Assembly (NCBI GenBank): GCA_951800645.1
Contig: CATOIK010000013.1
Location: forward strand, 1 to 64,000
DNA: 64,000 nt
Reading direction: 5' to 3'
From: an uncultured Eubacteriales bacterium
GTDB lineage: Bacteria; Bacillota; Clostridia; Lachnospirales; Lachnospiraceae
The position numbers were made by a program, and so were the translations under genes. Numbering within the stretch: position 1 is the first letter of the stretch; every line of letters begins with the position of its first letter. The notes under the pieces were generated by a model that saw only the letters and a list, made by a program, of their open reading frames with translations, did no database searches and had not been told where the DNA came from. Positions 18,113 through 26,808 of this stretch are shown here, in pieces.

Positions 18113-18607
18113 TTAAGTTTGCTCCTCATTCACCGTCCGATACACTTCTTCCACAATCCGTTCCATAGCGTCCAGGATCTTCTCGTATCCGGTGCACCGG
18201 CACAGGTGGCCGGAAATCAGCTTGCGAAGCTCATCCCGGTTATACTTCTTTCCGGTGCCAACAATCTCCACGGCGCTCATAATCAGGCCTGGGGTGCAAA
18301 AGCCGCACTGAACCGCCGCTTCCTCCACAAACGCTTTTTGGATAGGAGACAGCTCTCCATTTGGCCCTTTTAAGCCCTCTACCGTCATAATGCTGCGGCC
18401 CTCTGCCCACATAGTCAGGTAGATGCAGCTATCCACAGCCTCCCCATCTACCAGAACCGTACAGGCGCCGCACTCTCCTACCTCGCAGCCCTTCTTCACA
18501 GAAGTCAGCCCCAGCCGGTTGCGCAGGGTATCCAAAAGGGATTCCCGCTCATCTACAGCCAACTCCCGCCAGGTTCCGTTTACTGTCATATGAACAATTT
18601 TAAGCAT
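18113..18607 (-). CDS. xdhC: Xanthine dehydrogenase, [2Fe-2S] subunit
   Basis: A 164-residue ferredoxin-type subunit of the xanthine oxidase family. The plant-type cluster ligands are in GCEVGECGACTVLVDGE followed by CIYL. The second cluster lies in a four-helix domain with CGFCTPGLIMSA and HLCRCTGY. It relays electrons from molybdopterin to FAD. It overlaps the FAD subunit gene by 8 bp and is the last gene of the purine operon. Subunit letters vary among organisms; here it is named for the small iron-sulphur subunit. Confidence 0.93.
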   Translation of the reverse strand: MLKIVHMTVNGTWRELAVDERESLLDTLRNRLGLTSVKKGCEVGECGACTVLVDGEAVDSCIYLTMWAEGRSIMTVEGLKGPNGELSPIQKAFVEEAAVQCGFCTPGLIMSAVEIVGTGKKYNRDELRKLISGHLCRCTGYEKILDAMERIVEEVYRTVNEEQT

Positions 18608-19490
18608 TCATTATCCCTCCCCCTCGTTCAACTGCTTCTTTCAATGCCCGTCTGGCCAGTTCTCCAATCAGTTGAATCCGGAATTCCTTAGACGCCCGCC
18701 AGGAGCTTCGGGGATTTACCTCTGTGAGAGCTGTTTCCACAAACCGCTCCACAGCTTCCATATCTCCTACCCTGCTGCCCTTTAAAACCGCCTCTGCCTT
18801 TCTGCACCGCAGAGGCGTAGGACCTGCCACACCATAGCCTAAACGCCCATCTTCGATTCTGGTTTTATCCTCTGACAGCTTTACCCGCACAGCGCAGCCC
18901 AGGGTGGCAATCTCCATAGCCCTCCGCTTGCCGTACTTTTTGTAAACGCCGTGCCAGCCTTCAAAATTCTCTTTCCGTATCAGGAAATACTTACAGATTT
19001 CCCGCCGGTCTCTTACCGTCCGGCCCGGCCCGGTGTAAAACTGGCTGATAGGCACAATCCGTTCTCCCTCTGGCCCTTCCAAAACCAGCTCTGCATCCAA
19101 AGTCCACATAGTAGAAGCCGAATCTGCAGAGGTGGCGCCGTTGCAGATATTTCCGCCTATGGTAGCCACATTCCGGATCTGCGGCCCGCCTACAGTGTCT
19201 GCCGCCTCTCCCAGCATGGGAAGGTATTTCTGAATCAGCGGGTCATTGGTAATATGAGAAAAGGCCGTGGCTGCCCCAATTTTTATATCACCTGAGTCAG
19301 TCAGCTCTACTCCCTTCAGCTCCGGAATTTTCTGGATAGACACCAGGCTGCAGCCTGCGTCCTTTCCCTCCCGCACCCGGATCAGCACATCGGTGCCGCC
19401 GCTGATCACCTGAGCCTTCTCATCCTGCGACAGGGCCCGGATGGCATCCTCCACGCTTTTTGCTTCATAAAACGACTGAATATCAAACAT
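18600..19490 (-). CDS. xdhB: Xanthine dehydrogenase, FAD-binding subunit
   Basis: A 296-residue FAD subunit. The FAD-binding domain (about 1-170) shows KAQVISGGTDVLIRVREG and the diagnostic GGPQIRNVATIGGNICNGAT, which contacts the FAD pyrophosphate. The CO-dehydrogenase flavoprotein C-terminal domain occupies about 175-285. It passes electrons to NAD+ or another acceptor. AAAGGAG sets the start. It is 20 bp downstream of xdhA and overlaps xdhC, so translation is coupled. Confidence 0.94.
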   Translation of the reverse strand: MFDIQSFYEAKSVEDAIRALSQDEKAQVISGGTDVLIRVREGKDAGCSLVSIQKIPELKGVELTDSGDIKIGAATAFSHITNDPLIQKYLPMLGEAADTVGGPQIRNVATIGGNICNGATSADSASTMWTLDAELVLEGPEGERIVPISQFYTGPGRTVRDRREICKYFLIRKENFEGWHGVYKKYGKRRAMEIATLGCAVRVKLSEDKTRIEDGRLGYGVAGPTPLRCRKAEAVLKGSRVGDMEAVERFVETALTEVNPRSSWRASKEFRIQLIGELARRALKEAVERGGGIMNA

Positions 19491-19510: not shown

Positions 19511-21937
19511 TTAAATCAGGCTCTGAGCCTTAAACGCCGCCGTCAGCCGCTGAGCCGTCATAGGCGTCACATTCATATGTACTCCGGTTGCATGAAGAAT
19601 AGCATTCCGGATAGCCGGCGCCACCGGGATAGCCGGCGGTTCTCCCAGAGATTTATTGCCATAAGGCCCGGTAGGGTCTTCCAACTGGATAAATTCCACA
19701 TCCAGATCCGGCACATCCATGGCCGTGGGAATCTTGTAATCCAGCAGGTTGTCATTCAGTACCCGCCCTGTCTTTTCATCTACCAGCATTTCCTCAGAAA
19801 GTCCGTATCCCAGTCCCATGCTCATGCCGCCTTCCACCTGGCCCTCTGCCAGCTTCGGGTTAATGAGAATGCCGGAATCGTGGACATTGATAATCTTCTT
19901 TACATGAACCAGCCCCAGAGGCATATCCACCTCAACATCTACAAAACAGCAGCCGGAAGCGAAAGTATTATCCTTGCAGTGATTGGTTACCTCTGCCGTA
20001 ATATGCTGGGAGCGGTCCAGAGAATAAACCGATGTTTCCGCCACCACAGCCACATCAAACAGCTTCGGTGCGCCGCCGGTTACTACCACCTGATTTTCCA
20101 CAATATCAAGCATTTCTGCAGTTATCTGATCCTCAGCGGAAAGCCCCAAAGCTTCCCTCATCCTTCCTGCCGCCTGTCTCACCGTCCCGCCGTGAATGGT
20201 CTTTGCCAGATCTGTCTCTGCGTAGTTTAACATGTATGCAGCATACTCTAAGATCCGCTCACGCAGAACCTGGCCGCATTTCTTACAGGCCATGCCGGAA
20301 ACATAGGTCTGCCGGGAGGCATAAGCTCCGGTGTCAAAGGGCGTAGTGTCTGTGTCCTGAGTAGAAACCACATACACCCGGTCAAAGGTCAGTCCTGTGG
20401 CCTCTGCCGCCATCTGGGAAAACACCGTATCTGCTCCCTGGCCAATCTCCGTAGCTCCCATGCAAAGCTGCAGGGAGCCGTCCTGGTTCAGTACCATCCG
20501 CACAGACGCAGTCTCCAGGGAAATGGGGTAAACGCCGGTCTTGTAGCAGAAAATCGCCATGCCTACGCCTCGCCGCACCGGGCCGGTCTGATTTGCATAG
20601 GCTTTCCGCTTCTCATCCCAACAGATTCTCTCCCGCCCCCGCTCAATACACTGCTTCAGTCCGTAAGAATGGAATGCAATGCCGTTGGCCGGGTCTACAA
20701 ACCCTTCTCCCATACAATTTTTAAGCCGGAAATCGCAGGGATCCATGCCGATTTTCTCCGCCAGATCATCTGTCAGACACTCGGCAAACCAGTCTGCCTG
20801 AGGAATCCCATAGGCCCGCATGGCCCCGGCAGTAGGCGATGAAGTGTAAACTGTGCTGCAGTCCACCTCGCATCCTAATTCATCCTGATACAAATCCTTA
20901 AATACATTGCCGCAGTTGGCACAGATAGCGTGGCCATGGGAAGCATATCCGCCGTTGTTGGCATAGGCATCCAGCTTTCTTGCCAGCAGTTTTCCGTCTT
21001 TTGTTGCCGCCCCTTTGCATCGTCCTAAAATCGCATGGCGGGTTCTGGTACTGCAGATGGTCTCCTCTCTGCTGATTTCCAGCCGGACCGGATGACCGCC
21101 TACCGCCATAGTCAAAAAAGCATTTAACGGTTCATACAGTACATCCTGCTTGTTTCCGAAGCCGCCGCCAATATAAGGCTTGATAATCCGAATCTTTCCA
21201 ATATCGATCCCCAGAGCCTGTGCCGTACACCGCCGTACAATATGGGGAATCTGGGTAGATGAGGTGATGGTAACCTTTCCGTTTACATCCACATAAGCCC
21301 AGGAAACCGGCAGTTCCAGATGGCAGTGGGAAATCCTGGGCGTGTCATAATCTGCTTCTACCAACACCAGATTTTCCTCTCCGTACTGCTCCTTTGCCTG
21401 ACGAAGGCCTTCTTCAAAAGTAAAATCCGACGGTCCCATAGTCATATGGGAATGGACAATCACATTGTCCTTTCGTATATCCGGATGCAGCGGCGTGGCG
21501 CCTTCCCTCATAGCCGCCTCTACCGTTACAATCGGCTCATACTCCTCATATTCTGCCTTTACCAGTCGGGCAGCGCGGGCAGCAGCCACCTCATCTGTGG
21601 CAATTACAGCGGCGATGTCATCGCCATATATCCGCACTCTCTGATTTAAAATTTTCCGGTCGCAGATGTCCTGATGCTTTTCCTCCACGCTCCAGGGATG
21701 CCCTGCCGTAGGGAACTGACAATCCGGCACATCAAAACAGGTAACAATTTTAATTACTCCCGGAACCTTTAAGGCTTCCTCCAGATCAAAACTCTTTACT
21801 AATCCGTTGGCAATGGTAGAGTGAACCACTTTTCCGTGATAAATATCCCTGGGTTCTAAGTCTGCGCTGTATTTTGCCTCGCCGGTAACCTTCCCCCAGG
21901 CGTCCACCCGCTGCATTTCTTTTCCTACAACACCCAT
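19511..21937 (-). CDS. xdhA: Xanthine dehydrogenase, molybdopterin-binding subunit
   Basis: An 808-residue catalytic subunit of the xanthine oxidase family, hydroxylating hypoxanthine/xanthine at molybdenum. The N-terminal a/b hammerhead domain begins MGVVGKEMQRVDAWGKVTGE. Cofactor-binding stretches include KPYIGGGFGNKQD, AMRAYGIPQADWFAE, MGATEIGQGADTVFSQMAAE, and the active-site Glu lies in NKSLGEPPAIPVAPAI. Related enzymes with other purine or nicotinate substrates exist, but the guanine and adenine deaminases upstream make xanthine the best substrate. No cofactor-insertion gene (XdhC/MocA-like) is present locally. Confidence 0.92.
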   Translation of the reverse strand: MGVVGKEMQRVDAWGKVTGEAKYSADLEPRDIYHGKVVHSTIANGLVKSFDLEEALKVPGVIKIVTCFDVPDCQFPTAGHPWSVEEKHQDICDRKILNQRVRIYGDDIAAVIATDEVAAARAARLVKAEYEEYEPIVTVEAAMREGATPLHPDIRKDNVIVHSHMTMGPSDFTFEEGLRQAKEQYGEENLVLVEADYDTPRISHCHLELPVSWAYVDVNGKVTITSSTQIPHIVRRCTAQALGIDIGKIRIIKPYIGGGFGNKQDVLYEPLNAFLTMAVGGHPVRLEISREETICSTRTRHAILGRCKGAATKDGKLLARKLDAYANNGGYASHGHAICANCGNVFKDLYQDELGCEVDCSTVYTSSPTAGAMRAYGIPQADWFAECLTDDLAEKIGMDPCDFRLKNCMGEGFVDPANGIAFHSYGLKQCIERGRERICWDEKRKAYANQTGPVRRGVGMAIFCYKTGVYPISLETASVRMVLNQDGSLQLCMGATEIGQGADTVFSQMAAEATGLTFDRVYVVSTQDTDTTPFDTGAYASRQTYVSGMACKKCGQVLRERILEYAAYMLNYAETDLAKTIHGGTVRQAAGRMREALGLSAEDQITAEMLDIVENQVVVTGGAPKLFDVAVVAETSVYSLDRSQHITAEVTNHCKDNTFASGCCFVDVEVDMPLGLVHVKKIINVHDSGILINPKLAEGQVEGGMSMGLGYGLSEEMLVDEKTGRVLNDNLLDYKIPTAMDVPDLDVEFIQLEDPTGPYGNKSLGEPPAIPVAPAIRNAILHATGVHMNVTPMTAQRLTAAFKAQSLI

Positions 21938-22052: not shown

Positions 22053-23426
22053 TTACAGGAATATGTACTTTGCCACAAACAGGATTGCCAGCACATACAT
22101 CAGGGCGCTGATCTTCTTGTCTTTTGCCTTTCCGGTTACCAGGTTGATCACTACATAAGAGATAACGCCCATAGCGATACCTTCGGAAATGCTGTACATA
22201 AACGGCATTGCGATGATAGCGATATAGCAGGGAATTGCCTCTGTAAAATCGTTGAAATCAATCTTGGTAATAGAGGTAAGCATCAGGAAACCAACCACTA
22301 TCAGAGCCGGAGCCGTTGCAAAGGACGGAATTGCCAAAAAGATTGGAGACAGGAACAGGGACAGACCGAATAACAGAGCTGCCACAACTGCCGTCAGACC
22401 GGTACGGCCGCCTTCTGCCACGCCGGAGGCGCTCTCTACGAAAGTGGTGGTAGTGGAAGTACCCAGCATTGCACCTACGGAAGTACCAACTGCATCGGAT
22501 AACAAAGCGCCGCGGATTTTTGGAAGCTTGCCGTCTTTATCCAGCATATCTGCCTTGGAAGCCACGCCAATCAAGGTTCCCAGAGTATCAAACATATCTA
22601 CAAACAGGAAAGCAAACAAAATGGCAAAGAATTCCAGGTTGAAAATTTTAGAAAAGTCCATCTGCATAAAGGTAGGAGCCAGACTGGGAACGCTGATGCC
22701 ATTGGAGAAATCCGGAAGCAGACTGAACATGCCGATTTCCGGGTTTACCTTGTAAAGACCAGTAAGCTGGCAGATGATGCCCAGTCCCCAGGTAATTAAA
22801 ATACCCCAAAGGATATTGCCCTTTACGCCTTTTACAACCAGCACGCCGGTAATCAGGATGCCCAGCATAGCTAAAAGAACGGTGATGCCCTCGCTGTTAA
22901 ACAGGCCGCTGGCTACAGAATTCTTAAAGGAATAAACGGTTACCAGAGTAGCGCTGTCCACTACAATCTTTGCGTTCTGCAGACCGATGAATGCGATAAA
23001 CAGACCGATACCTACAGACACGCCGTGCTTTAAGTTCATGGGAATGGCATTGAAAATAGCCTCACGCACATTGGTTAAAGACAGCACAATGAAGATAAGG
23101 CCTTCCAGGAATACGGCTGCCAGAGCCATCTGCCAGGTGTAGCCCATCTGCAAAACTACGGTATAGGCAAAGTAAGCGTTTAAGCCCATGCCGGGAGCCA
23201 GTACAAAAGGATAGTTAGCAAATGCCGCCATAAACAAGGTTGCAATAAGCGATGCCAAAGCCGTAGCTGTAAAAACTGCACCGCTGTCCATACCGGCTGC
23301 ACTTAAAATGTTGGGATTGACCGCCAGAATGTAGGCCATGGTCATAAAGGTGGTTACACCGGCGATGATTTCTGTCTTCACATCTGTGTGGTTTTCCTTC
23401 AAGTGAAACAGTTTGTCAAGATTCAT
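22053..23426 (-). CDS. NCS2-family purine permease (AzgA type)
   Basis: A 457-residue polytopic membrane protein with about 12-14 hydrophobic segments, of the AzgA/PbuG branch that imports adenine, guanine or hypoxanthine with protons. Family marks are EIIAGVTTFMTMAYILAVNP at the N-terminus, APGMGLNAYFAYTV, and FVDMFDTLGTLIGVASKAD in the middle. It is 39 bp downstream of the adenine deaminase and 115 bp upstream of xdhA, separated from the latter by a strong hairpin. It supplies substrate to the deaminases and dehydrogenase around it. Confidence 0.93.
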   Translation of the reverse strand: MNLDKLFHLKENHTDVKTEIIAGVTTFMTMAYILAVNPNILSAAGMDSGAVFTATALASLIATLFMAAFANYPFVLAPGMGLNAYFAYTVVLQMGYTWQMALAAVFLEGLIFIVLSLTNVREAIFNAIPMNLKHGVSVGIGLFIAFIGLQNAKIVVDSATLVTVYSFKNSVASGLFNSEGITVLLAMLGILITGVLVVKGVKGNILWGILITWGLGIICQLTGLYKVNPEIGMFSLLPDFSNGISVPSLAPTFMQMDFSKIFNLEFFAILFAFLFVDMFDTLGTLIGVASKADMLDKDGKLPKIRGALLSDAVGTSVGAMLGTSTTTTFVESASGVAEGGRTGLTAVVAALLFGLSLFLSPIFLAIPSFATAPALIVVGFLMLTSITKIDFNDFTEAIPCYIAIIAMPFMYSISEGIAMGVISYVVINLVTGKAKDKKISALMYVLAILFVAKYIFL

Positions 23427-23465: not shown

Positions 23466-25250
23466 TTATTTCTGCACCTTTGATTCAGATTCAGCCTGCT
23501 CTGCATCAAAGGAAACATTCATGATTTTTTGACTGGCTGTATCCACCAGTCCGCAGGTGTTAAGCCGCACTGCCGGAATCACCGGAAGACTGACAAAGGA
23601 CAGGGTCATAAATGGGTCAATATCCTCTCCTACTCCCAGCTTTCTGGCCAGAGCCTTTAATTCCTCCAGCTTTTCATCCACAGTTTCCACAGTCTCGCCG
23701 GTCATCAAACCGCCAATGGGAAGGGGCAAAAGTCCCAGAAGCCGTCCTTCCTCTGCCACCGCAATGCCGCCGCCAGCCTGACGGACCGCCTCTGCAGCCA
23801 CCGCCATATCCCGGTCTGATGTTCCTGCAACAATCAGGTTGTGGGAATCGTGGGCTACACTGGTAGCCACAGCCCCCTGCTTTAATCCATAGCCTTTTAA
23901 AAAACCAACGCCTTTATGTCCGGTATGTTTATGCCGTTCCAGGACTGCCAGCTTCACAAGTCCGGCCTCTGGATTCACCCCCGGCGGATAGCCCTTCTGC
24001 CTGCTGCAGGGCTGTACCTCCAATCTGGTAAGCAGTTCCCCCGGCGTCAGACAGATGACCCGCAAATGACTTCCCGGACATTCCAGCCGGAAATCTTCCT
24101 CGGTTACTGCATCCATATGGAAAGAATGGAACACCCGGTCATAAGCCTTCGTCCTGCTTTCATGGGGACGCAGCGCCTTGCCGTCCTCAGCCACCAGCTT
24201 TCCGCCTTTATAAACCTGCTTTACTTCCAAGGAATTTAAGTCTGACAGCACCACAAGGTCTGCTTTATAGCCAGGCGCCACTGCACCCTTTCCTTTTAGC
24301 CCGAAATACTGGGCCGGATAATAGCTGCCCATCAAAAGAGCAGTTACCGGGTCTGCGCCTAATCTGACTGCTTTGCGGATGATGCCGTCAATATGGCCAA
24401 CTCGCTTTAAATCTCCTGGATGCTTGTCGTCTGTCACAAACATGCATCTGGAAGCATAAGGATCTTTGCAGAGAGGCATCAGCGCTTCTAAATTTCTGGC
24501 CGCCGTTCCCTCCCGGATCATAATCCACTGGCCTCTCCTCAGCTTCTCCAGCCCTTCCTCAAAGGCAGAACACTCGTGGTCTGAAGCCACGCCGGCTGTC
24601 ACATAAGCGTTTAATTCCTTCTCTGTAATTCCGGGAGCATGACCGTCTATGATTTTCCGCTCTGTCATAGCTTCCGACAGCTTCCGGGCTATTTTTTCAT
24701 CCGCCCGGACAGTTCCGAAGGAATTCATCATCTCTGCCAGCCCCAGCACCCTCTTATTGCTGTAATAGGGGCGAAGCGCCTCTGCCTCCAGCACAGCTCC
24801 CGATTCTTCCAGGTCTGCCGCCGGAACGCAGGAGGGAAGCATTACATAAACATCCAAATCCAGCCCTTCTGCAGCGTCCAGTATGTAGTCAATCCCTTCC
24901 GTACCTGCCACATTGGCAATCTCGTGAGGGTCTGTTATCACCGCTGTGGTTCCGTGGGGCAGCACTGCCCGCTCAAATTCCGCCGGCGATACCATGGAGC
25001 TTTCCAGATGAATATGGCCGTCTATAAAGCCGGGACAGACAATCATACCGGAAATATCCCGCTCCTCCTCTCCCTCATAGGAGCCGATTCCGATGATGCA
25101 GCCGTCTGTAATGGCTACATCTGCCATTTCCAGCTCCCTGGTAAAGACATTGAGCACCTGGCCGCCCTTTAACACCAGATGAGCCTTTTTTGCTCCTGAA
25201 GCAGCCAGAATCCGATTCCTCAGGCTGTCTTCCTGTTTCCTTTCTTCCAT
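23466..25250 (-). CDS. adeC: Adenine deaminase
   Basis: A 594-residue amidohydrolase converting adenine to hypoxanthine and ammonia. The metal-binding motif is VCPGFIDGHIHLESSM (about 70-85), followed by TTAVITDPHEIANVAGTEG, HAPGITEKELNAYV and FVTDDKHPGDL. The C-terminal adenine-deaminase domain includes VATSVAHDSHNLIVAGTSD and GLLPLPIGGLMTGE. Length is normal for the AdeC/YerA type. CAGGAGG sets the start. It lies 51 bp after guanine deaminase and 39 bp before the permease in the purine operon. Confidence 0.95.
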   Translation of the reverse strand: MEERKQEDSLRNRILAASGAKKAHLVLKGGQVLNVFTRELEMADVAITDGCIIGIGSYEGEEERDISGMIVCPGFIDGHIHLESSMVSPAEFERAVLPHGTTAVITDPHEIANVAGTEGIDYILDAAEGLDLDVYVMLPSCVPAADLEESGAVLEAEALRPYYSNKRVLGLAEMMNSFGTVRADEKIARKLSEAMTERKIIDGHAPGITEKELNAYVTAGVASDHECSAFEEGLEKLRRGQWIMIREGTAARNLEALMPLCKDPYASRCMFVTDDKHPGDLKRVGHIDGIIRKAVRLGADPVTALLMGSYYPAQYFGLKGKGAVAPGYKADLVVLSDLNSLEVKQVYKGGKLVAEDGKALRPHESRTKAYDRVFHSFHMDAVTEEDFRLECPGSHLRVICLTPGELLTRLEVQPCSRQKGYPPGVNPEAGLVKLAVLERHKHTGHKGVGFLKGYGLKQGAVATSVAHDSHNLIVAGTSDRDMAVAAEAVRQAGGGIAVAEEGRLLGLLPLPIGGLMTGETVETVDEKLEELKALARKLGVGEDIDPFMTLSFVSLPVIPAVRLNTCGLVDTASQKIMNVSFDAEQAESESKVQK

Positions 25251-25301: not shown

Positions 25302-26573
25302 TTATACAGCTTCCCCGGCTACGAACTTGGCGAAAATCTGCCGGTCATCGGACAGATACACAATTCGCTCCAGCCGTTGCCTGAGAGTCAGTTGCATTGG
25401 GGTTTTAAGAGCGCTGTCATCCAGCACCACCGCATCCAGCTCATATCCCGGCTCAAAACTTCCCACTTTTCCAAAGAAACTGCCGCCTCCCTTAGTAGCC
25501 ATGTAAAAGGCTTCCTCTAAGGTCAGAGGCTTTTTGGTTTCATCTGCCAGCCGCCAGTACATTTTAGACATCTGGATAGCAGAGGCCATGACCCGGAAAA
25601 CAGAATCACTGCTGCCGCCGGAAACATCAGTTCCAAGTCCAACCTTCAGTCCTTTATCCAGAAATGTCCGCACCGGAGCAATACCGGAAGACAAATCTGC
25701 ATTAGAGGTGGGACAGTGGGCAATCCAAACTCCCCGCTCCTTCATCAGCTCCTGTTCCTGCTCTCCTGAGTATACACAGTGCGCCATAATGGTGCTGCAG
25801 CCCTCTCCGCCGAACATTCCAAAGTGGTCGTAAGCGTCTCCATAACACTCAGACCAGGGGCAAAGCTCCTTCACCCAGGCAATCTCACCCAGATTTTCTG
25901 AAAGATGAGACTGCACCGGAAGTCCGGTCTCCTTCTGAAGCCTGCTTAACCGCTCCATCAGCTCATCGGTACAACTGGGGATAAACCGGGGAGTTAAAAC
26001 AGGCTGTACTCGTTTAAACCTTCCGGCAATGTCAGCCAGCCACTGTCTGGTAGCCGCCTCAGAAGCCTCCGGGCTTTCCTCCCGCAGAATATCCGGGCTG
26101 TTCCGATCCATGTTTACTTTTCCTACCATTACCTTCAGGCCGGTTGCCTCCAGCTTTTCCATAAGCAGCTCCGTAGCCGGCACATGCAAGGATGAAAAAA
26201 TACAGGCTCTGGTAGTAGCTCCCTTTTTTAAATTCTCCGCAAAAATAGAGTATCCTTTTTCTGCATAATCCAGGTCTTTGTATCTGGCTTCCTCCGGAAA
26301 CACCTGATGATCCAGCCATTCCAGAAGTTCCATATCCATGCCCATGCCGCAGAATCCGTACTGGGGGGCGTGCATGTGCAAATCCACCAGCCCCGGTATG
26401 ATCAGCCGGTTGCCGTAGTCCTTTACTTCTGCGTTTTCCCAGCCTTCCGGCAGGTTTTCCTCTACACCACAGCAAATTCCGTCCTCACACAGCAGATAGC
26501 TGTTTTCCATGACAGTAATTTTGTCCAGCCTTTCACTGTAACAAATCTGTCCTTTCAGCGCAAACCGAGTCAT
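25302..26573 (-). CDS. guaD: Guanine deaminase
   Basis: A 423-residue amidohydrolase deaminating guanine to xanthine. Zinc ligands are visible as H-x-H in IPGLVDLHMHAPQYGFCGMG, His in PVQSHLSENLGE, His in IMAHCVYS and Asp in VGLGTDVSGGSS. This DLH-M-H-APQY form is typical of guanine deaminases rather than cytosine or chlorohydrolase relatives. AAGGAGG precedes the ATG. It is the first gene of the purine operon, directly behind the purine riboswitch. Product xanthine is the substrate of the dehydrogenase encoded four genes downstream. Confidence 0.93.
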   Translation of the reverse strand: MTRFALKGQICYSERLDKITVMENSYLLCEDGICCGVEENLPEGWENAEVKDYGNRLIIPGLVDLHMHAPQYGFCGMGMDMELLEWLDHQVFPEEARYKDLDYAEKGYSIFAENLKKGATTRACIFSSLHVPATELLMEKLEATGLKVMVGKVNMDRNSPDILREESPEASEAATRQWLADIAGRFKRVQPVLTPRFIPSCTDELMERLSRLQKETGLPVQSHLSENLGEIAWVKELCPWSECYGDAYDHFGMFGGEGCSTIMAHCVYSGEQEQELMKERGVWIAHCPTSNADLSSGIAPVRTFLDKGLKVGLGTDVSGGSSDSVFRVMASAIQMSKMYWRLADETKKPLTLEEAFYMATKGGGSFFGKVGSFEPGYELDAVVLDDSALKTPMQLTLRQRLERIVYLSDDRQIFAKFVAGEAV

Positions 26574-26619
26574 TCAGTCCTCCTTCCTGCTGCCGGAACC
26601 CGCTTTTGTTTTCCAAATG

Positions 26620-26737
26620 AAAAAACTACCGCTGAACCTAGCGTTTTCACAGACAGCATCCCTGCGAAAACTTATAGACAACTATTTGCGGTAGTTGGTA
26701 GAGACGCTCAACCGATTATGAGCCTATATAAGTTTTG
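26620..26737 (-). promoter_or_regulatory. Purine (guanine-class) riboswitch with predicted ON platform
   Basis: The aptamer is at 26737-26667. P1 is AAAACTTATA/TATAAGTTTT, J2/3 is GTCTCTACC, P3 is CAACTA/TAGTTG with loop CCGCAAA, and J3/1 is T-C. Ligand-contacting U22, U47, U51 and C74 are all in register, and C74 predicts guanine. P2 is short (GCTCA/TGAGC, 8-base loop TAATCGGT). Downstream, GCGGTAGTT (26632-26624) is perfectly complementary to AACTACCGC of P3/L3 and is followed by four more T residues. GTTTTCGCAG/CTGTGAAAAC competes with P1. Without ligand these would form a terminator-like structure; ligand binding would disrupt it. Folding was done by hand. Confidence 0.85.
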
Positions 26738-26751
26738 TTAATATTAACAAA
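26734..26751. promoter_or_regulatory. Perfect 18-bp palindrome between promoter and aptamer
   Basis: TTTGTTAATATTAACAAA is a perfect palindrome beginning at the 5' edge of the aptamer P1 and lying about 30 bp downstream of the promoter -10. It could be an operator roadblock or a small leader hairpin. Confidence 0.5.
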
Positions 26752-26779
26752 TTTTCCTTTTTGTTTCTATCTATTTTAT

Positions 26780-26808
26780 ACACTATCACACAATTTCGCC
26801 AATGTCAA
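26780..26808 (-). promoter_or_regulatory. Promoter of the purine catabolic operon
   Basis: A perfect TTGACA (26808-26803), then 17 bp to TAGTGT (26785-26780); an AT-rich TATAAAAT follows. It lies about 45 bp upstream of the riboswitch aptamer. Confidence 0.6.

What the first reader, a model, noticed from the sequence alone, without database searches (positions are those of the whole stretch)
26620..26808. Variant guanine-class riboswitch that appears to be an ON switch for a purine breakdown operon
Seen: the aptamer core keeps U22, U47, U51 and C74 in register, and P3/L3 aligns base for base with the xpt aptamer. P2 is 5 bp instead of 7, with an 8-base loop and U at position 73. AACTACCGC (P3 5' strand plus L3) is perfectly complementary to GCGGTAGTT downstream, which runs straight into U residues. 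A 10-bp GTTTTCGCAG/CTGTGAAAAC pairing competes with the P1 3' strand. Known: most guanine riboswitches turn biosynthesis and uptake OFF. Inference: ligand stabilises P1/P3, breaks the terminator-like pairing and turns guanine deaminase, adenine deaminase, permease and xanthine dehydrogenase ON, which suits catabolism.
Basis: partly seen in the sequence, partly recalled or inferred. Interest (0 to 1): 0.78.

Follow-up and report, generated by a model that had tools for sequence, protein, structure and literature searches.

The report
Guanine-sensing RNA switch for purine breakdown
A guanine-sensing RNA in front of guanine-breakdown genes most likely switches those genes on when guanine is present, the reverse of the textbook guanine switch, and many related bacteria seem to share the design.

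Summary
The finding holds. On the minus strand, window 26736-26667 is a purine riboswitch aptamer (Rfam RF00167, 54.2 bits, cut-off 37) with guanine-type pocket letters U22, U47, U51, C74. It lies before guaD, ade, a Xan_ur permease and xdhA, xdhB, xdhC. A 9-bp perfect helix between P3-5'/L3 (26696-26688) and 26632-26624 runs into a U tract and excludes the folded aptamer.

Relatives support the direction. Of 99 short-P2 leaders, 38 show the same helix core before a U tract (shuffled leaders: mean 3.1; 0 of 28 long-P2). In a second sample 24 of 39 new guaD leaders have it (shuffled: mean 1.5). Helix positions 55, 56 and 62 covary, 63 and 54 do not. Predicted terminators use the aptamer as 5' arm in 60 of 67 short-P2 and 3 of 20 long-P2 leaders.

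So this is most likely a transcriptional ON switch: guanine holds P1/P3 and blocks the terminator. The aptamer is the common form in this family, not an oddity. Ligand and direction are inferred; nothing was measured. The novelty lies in expression platform and polarity.

The parts
26803..26808 (-). -35 element TTGACA of the probable promoter
   Evidence: letters; TTGACA also stands upstream of the aptamer in L139 and L141. The consensus scan instead proposed TTGGCG (from 26802) with TAAAAT (to 26773), 9 of 12.
26780..26785 (-). -10-like TAGTGT, 17 nt after the -35 (weak match, inferred by comparison with TATGGT and TATTGT in two relatives)
26727..26736 (-). P1 5' strand AAAACUUAUA
26706..26723 (-). 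P2 (5 bp GCUCA/UGAGC) and 8-nt L2 UAAUCGGU
26698..26705 (-). J2/3 GUCUCUAC with U47 and U51 of the ligand pocket
26679..26697 (-). P3 CAACUA/UAGUUG with L3 CCGCAAA
26677..26678 (-). J3/1: U73 and C74 (C74 = guanine-type specificity base)
26667..26676 (-). P1 3' strand UAUAAGUUUU
26688..26696 (-). terminator 5' arm AACUACCGC (five of the six P3 5' letters plus L3 60-63)
26643..26671 (-). inner hairpin GUUUUCGCAG/CUGUGAAAAC that takes the end of the P1 3' strand
   Evidence: in 59 of 62 helix-bearing leaders at least 3 of the 10 nt of the P1 3' strand pair downstream, against 33 of 62 in one shuffle per leader
26620..26632 (-). terminator 3' arm GCGGUAGUU running into the U tract UUUUUU (26625-26620)
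26579..26585 (-). Shine-Dalgarno AAGGAGG of guaD (start codon 26573-26571)
25302..26573 (-). guaD, guanine deaminase family (TIGR02967 363.1 bits, just under its curated cut-off of 375.4)
23466..25250 (-). ade, adenine deaminase (TIGR01178, over cut-off)
22053..23426 (-). nucleobase permease (Pfam Xan_ur_permease; no NCBIfam match)
19511..21937 (-). xdhA (NF043082, over cut-off)
18600..19490 (-). xdhB (NF043083, over cut-off)
18113..18607 (-). xdhC (NF043084, over cut-off)

Best explanation
This is a guanine riboswitch that turns its operon ON at the level of transcription termination. Shown from sequence and comparison: the aptamer and a terminator-like structure share letters and cannot coexist. 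Inferred: when guanine is scarce, the late-made arm 26632-26624 captures P3-5'/L3, while the inner hairpin holds the P1 3' strand; this builds a terminator and RNA polymerase stops at the U tract. When guanine is plentiful it docks at C74/U51/U47, locks P1, P3 and the L2-L3 contact before that arm is made, and polymerase reads on into guaD-ade-permease-xdhABC. The cell then deaminates guanine to xanthine and oxidises it.
For: Aptamer: 54.2 bits, cut-off 37. Switching energies: free and aptamer-forced folds are equal until about 26650, then part to -34.5 against -26.5 kcal/mol at the U tract; the terminator helix has mean pair probability 0.94-0.96 in the free whole leader. Helix recurrence: 38 of 99 short-P2 leaders, 200 shuffles mean 3.1 and max 8, 0 of 28 long-P2; second sample 24 of 39, 200 shuffles mean 1.5 and max 4. 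Own arms against arms reassigned among 88 leaders with a U tract: mean score 13.6 against 12.4, 0 of 5000 permutations reach it; 27 of 88 exceed the 99th percentile of shuffled arms. Covariation outside the selected core, 62 leaders, standard pairs: position 62, 9 of 5000 permutations reach the observed; 55, 46 of 5000; 56, 69 of 5000. C63 faces G in both leaders that have C63 (L001, L147). Terminator 5' arm in the aptamer: 60 of 67 short-P2 against 3 of 20 long-P2, Fisher 5.9e-10. Genes: first gene guaD in 43 of 83 short-P2 against 1 of 28 long-P2; permease and/or XDH follows guaD in 54 of 60 named loci.
Against: No binding, termination or expression data. The terminator is unusual: its outer 9-bp stem encloses 55 nt with an inner hairpin; the consensus scan reported no terminator-like site, though it allows loops of 3-8 nt only. 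Helix positions 63 (2666 of 5000) and 54 (1643 of 5000) do not covary beyond chance. Positions 55 and 56 also lie in P3 and are under that constraint too. My first folding score left most leaders unclear (short-P2: 23 ON, 0 OFF, 57 unclear, 3 without U tract of 83), and the unanchored own-versus-cross comparison did not discriminate (on average 0.45 of other leaders scored at least as well). Seven of 67 short-P2 terminators are self-contained. In the genus only 3 of 7 guaD-bearing genomes show the aptamer. The ligand-bound state was modelled, not observed.
Confidence: 0.81

Rival explanations
1. Conventional OFF switch: ligand binding favours a terminator, as in xpt, and represses the operon.
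For: Guanine riboswitches commonly reduce expression when guanine is plentiful (PMC9295807, Results part 1); all four of C. difficile are OFF (PMC11477304, passages). Long-P2 aptamers here mostly have self-contained downstream terminators, 17 of 20.
Against: With the aptamer forced, the stretch before the U tract keeps a 6-bp hairpin and a 4-bp hairpin, the latter ending four nt short of the U tract. The one stem that abuts the U tract needs P3-5'/L3. Repression of a guanine-degrading operon by guanine makes little metabolic sense.
Confidence: 0.06
2. ON switch, but the natural ligand is another purine (xanthine, hypoxanthine, 8-oxoguanine or 2'-deoxyguanosine) because of U73, G24 and the short P2.
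For: Variants of this scaffold bind xanthine, guanine with higher selectivity, or 2'-deoxyguanosine, and an 8-oxoguanine variant is mentioned (PMC9295807, abstract, Results parts 1-2 and concluding remarks). The operon also handles xanthine and adenine.
Against: No J2/3 or J3/1 insertion and no U51G as in xanthine-II; U22, U47, U51 and C74 kept. Positions 24, 48 and 73 vary widely among 83 parsed relatives, so they hardly mark a new pocket.
Confidence: 0.1
3. Control is mainly translational: the ligand-free leader hides the Shine-Dalgarno or start codon.
For: In this leader the free fold pairs the Shine-Dalgarno 0.72 or 0.66 (mostly with J2/3, CUCUACC against GGAAGGAG) when folded to 26569 or 26560, against 0.15 or 0.29 with the aptamer forced. 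A sister set of nine guaD leaders has no predicted terminator and pairs its start region with the aptamer in the free fold, 0.64-0.88.
Against: The J2/3 pairing falls to 0.03-0.04 when the fold is carried to 26550 or 26530, where free and forced Shine-Dalgarno pairing are alike (0.22 against 0.28; 0.42 against 0.32). The Shine-Dalgarno lies 35 nt beyond a U tract that the free state should already use. In the nine sister leaders 0.38-0.62 of the start region stays paired with the aptamer forced.
Confidence: 0.07
4. The 9-bp complementarity is coincidental or a decayed copy of the P3 3' strand, with no regulatory role.
For: The 3' arm shares UAGUU with the P3 3' strand, since both pair with P3-5'.
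Against: It extends into the L3 complement (GCGG), stands against a U tract, recurs in 38 of 99 and 24 of 39 leaders against 3.1 and 1.5 in shuffled ones, and covaries at L3 position 62, which P3 pairing does not explain.
Confidence: 0.03

Closest known systems
Guanine-I riboswitch (B. subtilis xpt-pbuX type; Rfam RF00167)
   Same: Three-stem junction, L2-L3 pairing letters, U22/U47/U51/C74 pocket.
   Different: P2 5 bp, L2 8 nt, U73; predicted ON instead of OFF; controls catabolism instead of salvage or synthesis.
Guanine-II riboswitch (Paenibacillus, PRT genes; PMC9295807)
   Same: Guanine-type pocket letters and a predicted ON direction.
   Different: Guanine-II carries an insertion in J2/3 and most other xanthine-II variations and precedes phosphoribosyltransferases; none of that is here.
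Xanthine-II riboswitch (PMC9295807)
   Same: Upstream of purine breakdown genes including xanthine dehydrogenase; architecture consistent with ON.
   Different: U51G and J2/3 + J3/1 insertions are absent here.
pbuE adenine riboswitch (PMC7707468, passages)
   Same: Ligand stabilises the aptamer and P1 against an alternative structure; as recalled, a transcriptional ON switch.
   Different: As recalled, the pbuE terminator invades the P1 3' side; here its 5' arm is P3-5' plus loop L3. A P3-3'/P1-3' platform does occur in 15 sister leaders.
8-oxoguanine riboswitch before 8-oxoguanine deaminase (2023 paper, recalled; not held)
   Same: As recalled: purine-aptamer ON switch before a deaminase for its own ligand.
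   Different: As recalled: altered pocket, Paenibacillaceae.

Membership tests
Purine riboswitch RF00167 | Covariance-model score over the curated cut-off | tested here: met
   54.2 against 37 bits, model positions 1-102
Guanine riboswitch (guanine-I type) | U22, U47, U51 and C74 in register | tested here: met
   Alignment, letters (numbering recalled)
Guanine riboswitch (guanine-I type) | L2-L3 contact letters (GG of L2, CC of L3) | tested here: met
   L2 UAAUCGGU, L3 CCGCAAA; the contact itself is not shown
Guanine riboswitch (guanine-I type) | Binds guanine | not testable with these tools
   needs in-line probing
Guanine riboswitch with OFF expression platform | Terminator compatible with the bound aptamer | tested here: not met
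   By folding, only the aptamer-incompatible stem abuts the U tract
Guanine-II | Insertion in J2/3 and the J3/1 variations shared with xanthine-II | tested here: not met
   J2/3 GUCUCUAC and J3/1 UC, no insertion (criteria from PMC9295807)
Xanthine-II | U51G with insertions in J2/3 and J3/1 | tested here: not met
   U51 kept, no insertions (criteria)
Adenine riboswitch | U at position 74 | tested here: not met
   C74 at 26677
8-oxoguanine riboswitch | Altered pocket letters | not tested
   Paper not held
Transcriptional ON riboswitch (works like) | Ligand-free state forms a terminator that contains aptamer letters | tested here: inconclusive
   Predicted by folding and supported by comparison; termination not measured

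The most novel reading that the evidence does not exclude
One bacterial family (relatives titled Lachnospiraceae, Blautia, Lacrimispora, Hungatella and the like) carries a coherent set of short-P2 guanine riboswitches that are inverted as a group: they switch purine uptake and breakdown ON. They get there by at least three separate expression platforms (P3-5'/L3 terminator; P3-3'/P1-3' terminator; start codon and Shine-Dalgarno paired to the aptamer itself), as if selection fixed the polarity and left the wiring free.
Probability: 0.6. Interest if true: 0.62.

Novelty: new variant of a known kind. Interest (0 to 1): 0.52.

Why it matters
Guanine riboswitches are the textbook OFF switch for purine synthesis and salvage. 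A family-wide ON version before guanine deaminase, purine permease and xanthine dehydrogenase would show that the same pocket is used with reversed logic for catabolism, and would tie a direct RNA sensor to purine breakdown in a bacterial family with many gut members. It also gives a natural series of related aptamers with different expression platforms, useful for asking how switch polarity evolves.

Tried and rejected
First folding score: change in pairing beside the U tract between free and aptamer-forced folds. Short-P2, 83: 23 ON, 0 OFF, 57 unclear, 3 without U tract. Long-P2, 28: 2 ON, 0 OFF, 21 unclear, 2 without terminator, 3 without U tract. The forced fold still pairs these bases weakly, and in several rows the forced fold failed. 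The window itself was 'unclear' (free 1.00, forced 0.65). One search recounted by partner region but admitted U tracts inside coding sequence (67 of 80 short against 6 of 25 long, Fisher 6.4e-8). One search excludes them and is the count I use; the scores were thus changed twice after seeing results.

Unanchored helix search: own pairing was not better than cross pairing. Anchoring to a U tract separated them.

Covariation at position 63 was sought because it is unpaired in the aptamer: not significant. With identical rows collapsed (49), standard pairs: 62, 26 of 5000; 55, 99; 56, 116; 63, 2214. Position 59 covaries (0 of 5000) but lies in the core used for selection, as does 58, which does not (1710 of 5000).

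Rows dropped: of 138 places, 27 were set aside as 'odd' in the 83/28 split, 19 of them because the parsed base 74 was not C, 8 for a weak descriptor score or P1. So 'C74 in 83 of 83' is by construction, and U47/U51 in 83 of 83 leans on a descriptor that favours them; I do not use these as evidence. The 99-member set is defined by hit length and a looser score and keeps some odd rows: 5 of its 38 helix leaders are odd (L041, L042, L074, L104, L119). Some of the 38 have poor stems beyond the core (e.g. L050, L079). The descriptor requires the J2/3 letters and missed at least one true case (L149 is the G014 contig, where Rfam finds the aptamer), so 60 of 80 is a lower bound. The second sample contains close relatives of the first.

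Xanthine-II, guanine-II and adenine classes were rejected on pocket letters. A match of the leader in 50,697 phage records was sought and none found.

For this reason the translational rival went from 0.05 to 0.07 and the main reading from 0.83 to 0.81.

Full report
WHAT IS THERE. The minus strand of the window matches Rfam RF00167 at 26751-26655, 54.2 bits, cut-off 37. The aptamer 26736-26667 alone folds by minimum free energy into the expected three-way junction, -15.8 kcal/mol. It is the only RF00167 match found in the genome, which is incomplete. Downstream on the same strand come guaD, ade, a Xan_ur permease and xdhA, xdhB, xdhC. Upstream, TTGACA and a weak TAGTGT at 17 nt fit the promoter positions seen in two genus relatives; the consensus scan prefers an overlapping alternative.

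HOW THE SWITCH IS BUILT. AACUACCGC (five letters of P3-5' plus L3 60-63) is perfectly complementary to GCGGUAGUU, which runs into six U. Inside that loop GUUUUCGCAG/CUGUGAAAAC takes the end of the P1 3' strand. Free and aptamer-forced folds are equally stable until about 26650; the free fold then drops to -34.5 against -26.5 kcal/mol at the U tract. With the aptamer forced, the nearest hairpin is a 4-bp one that ends four nt short of the U tract. In the free whole leader the terminator helix has mean pair probability 0.94-0.96. This is the anatomy of a transcriptional ON switch. A second, translational layer is possible but not robust: Shine-Dalgarno pairing with J2/3 appears only for some fold end points.

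SAMPLE. RF00167 was searched in 99 relatives (19 with a match) and in 397 genomes of the same family, drawn from a larger group (86 with a match), both with stricter filters that lose weak matches. All 138 distinct listed places were read. By hit length (99 nt or less) and a loose descriptor score 99 are short-P2; by a stricter descriptor, which requires C74, 83 are short-P2, 28 long-P2 and 27 set aside.

GENES. In the 83, the first gene is guaD in 43, a FAD-dependent oxidoreductase in 15, a permease in 10. In the 28 long-P2 it is guaD in 1, with PRT (5), permease (5), BMP-type ABC transporter (5), purC (3) and pbuX-like (3) ahead (names from one representative per cluster). Position 73 is A 54, U 19, C 8, G 2 of 83; positions 24 and 48 vary too.

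THE ALTERNATIVE HELIX. A 5-bp core (positions 57-61) before a U tract occurs in 38 of 99 short-P2 leaders; 200 shuffles with T runs kept give mean 3.1, maximum 8; 0 of 28 long-P2 leaders have it. A second sample, 80 guaD loci from named genomes, has the aptamer in at least 60 (P2 span 18-19 nt in 58, 20 nt in 2); 39 leaders were new, and 24 of these carry the helix against mean 1.5, maximum 4 in shuffles. In the pooled 62 leaders, pairing outside the selected core exceeds permutation at 62 (49 of 62 paired; 9 of 5000 reach it), 55 (46 of 5000) and 56 (69 of 5000), not at 63 (2666 of 5000) or 54 (1643 of 5000). Collapsed to 49 distinct rows, 62 stays at 26 of 5000. Position 62 lies in L3, so P3 pairing does not explain it. 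Related sequences are not independent, so these counts are not exact probabilities.

ON VERSUS OFF ACROSS THE GROUP. Counting only U tracts before the gene start, 67 of 83 short-P2 leaders have a predicted terminator; its 5' arm lies in the aptamer in 60 (P3-5'/L3 42, P3-3'/P1-3' 15, 5' half 3) and downstream in 7. In long-P2 leaders 3 of 20 lie in the aptamer and 17 downstream, 8 have none (Fisher 5.9e-10). Among 43 short-P2 guaD leaders, 28 have an aptamer-containing terminator, 2 a downstream one and 13 none. In nine of the 13 the start region pairs with the aptamer in the free fold, 0.64-0.88; with the aptamer forced 0.38-0.62 of it is still paired, so release is partial. An earlier score of mine was mostly undecided (see Tried and rejected).

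OPERON LOGIC. In 60 named aptamer-bearing guaD loci a permease gene lies downstream in the fetched flank in 38, xdhA in 27, ade in 2; 5 show guaD alone and 1 guaD with ade only. Guanine switching ON its own deamination and the next oxidation step fits; repression would not. The riboswitch is not obligatory: in the genus 7 of 24 genomes have GuaD and 3 of the 7 have the aptamer.

LITERATURE. PMC9295807 (abstract, Results parts 1-2 of 3 and concluding remarks read) predicts ON for guanine-II and xanthine-II, both with changes absent here. PMC11477304 (passages) gives the four C. difficile guanine riboswitches as OFF; PMC9430930 (passages) describes an OFF case. The listings of searches in the open-access library showed no paper on a guanine riboswitch switching on guanine deaminase; subscription papers are mostly not held, so this is weak evidence of absence. 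The 8-oxoguanine riboswitch paper is recalled only.

VERDICT. Membership: a guanine-type RF00167 aptamer by letters and score, guanine binding untested. What it works like: a transcriptional ON switch with a terminator that invades P3 and L3. Not shown: ligand, direction in vitro, effect in cells.

Noticed in passing
window 26734-26751: A perfect 18-nt palindrome TTTGTTAATATTAACAAA lies just 5' of P1, between the promoter and the aptamer. It is absent at that place in L014. It could be an operator for a DNA-binding protein or chance.
   Followed up: no
L058, L071, L072, L082, L096, L106, L108, L120, L130 (guaD leaders): No predicted terminator before the gene; in the free fold the start region pairs with the aptamer (for instance AUGAAUCUAU with AUAGGUUCAU of P1/J1-2/P2, and the Shine-Dalgarno with J2/3). 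A candidate translational ON platform that uses coding sequence; release in the forced fold is only partial.
   Followed up: partly
L053, L054, L046, L093, L080 and others: pbuE-like platform: the P3 3' and P1 3' strands form the terminator 5' arm, before permease, FAD-dependent oxidoreductase or XDH genes.
   Followed up: partly
L066:1548-2954 (-), cluster of 23: A FAD-dependent oxidoreductase family (PF21688 in the representative) is the second commonest first gene behind short-P2 aptamers (15 of 83), which suggests a role in purine metabolism.
   Followed up: partly
L074 (G370:C5:124712-124974): Two aptamers in tandem before one guaD gene, both apparently with one extra base in J3/1. Doublet guanine riboswitches as such are known (PMC9481103, passage).
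   Followed up: no
   Followed up: partly
L021, L022, L023, L025, L026, L027: Aptamers with extra bases in J3/1 but U51 kept, upstream of permeases (47-63% identical to the window's) or the FAD-dependent oxidoreductase: guanine-II-like candidates.
   Followed up: no
L011 and L036: Parsed base 74 is U, as in adenine riboswitches; L036 has a short P2. Possible adenine-type members in the same order and family.
   Followed up: no
L208 (record titled Synergistaceae bacterium OttesenSCG-928-D05): A short-P2 aptamer with the same terminator helix before guaD in a record labelled Synergistaceae, which suggests horizontal transfer of the unit or a mislabelled contig.
   Followed up: no
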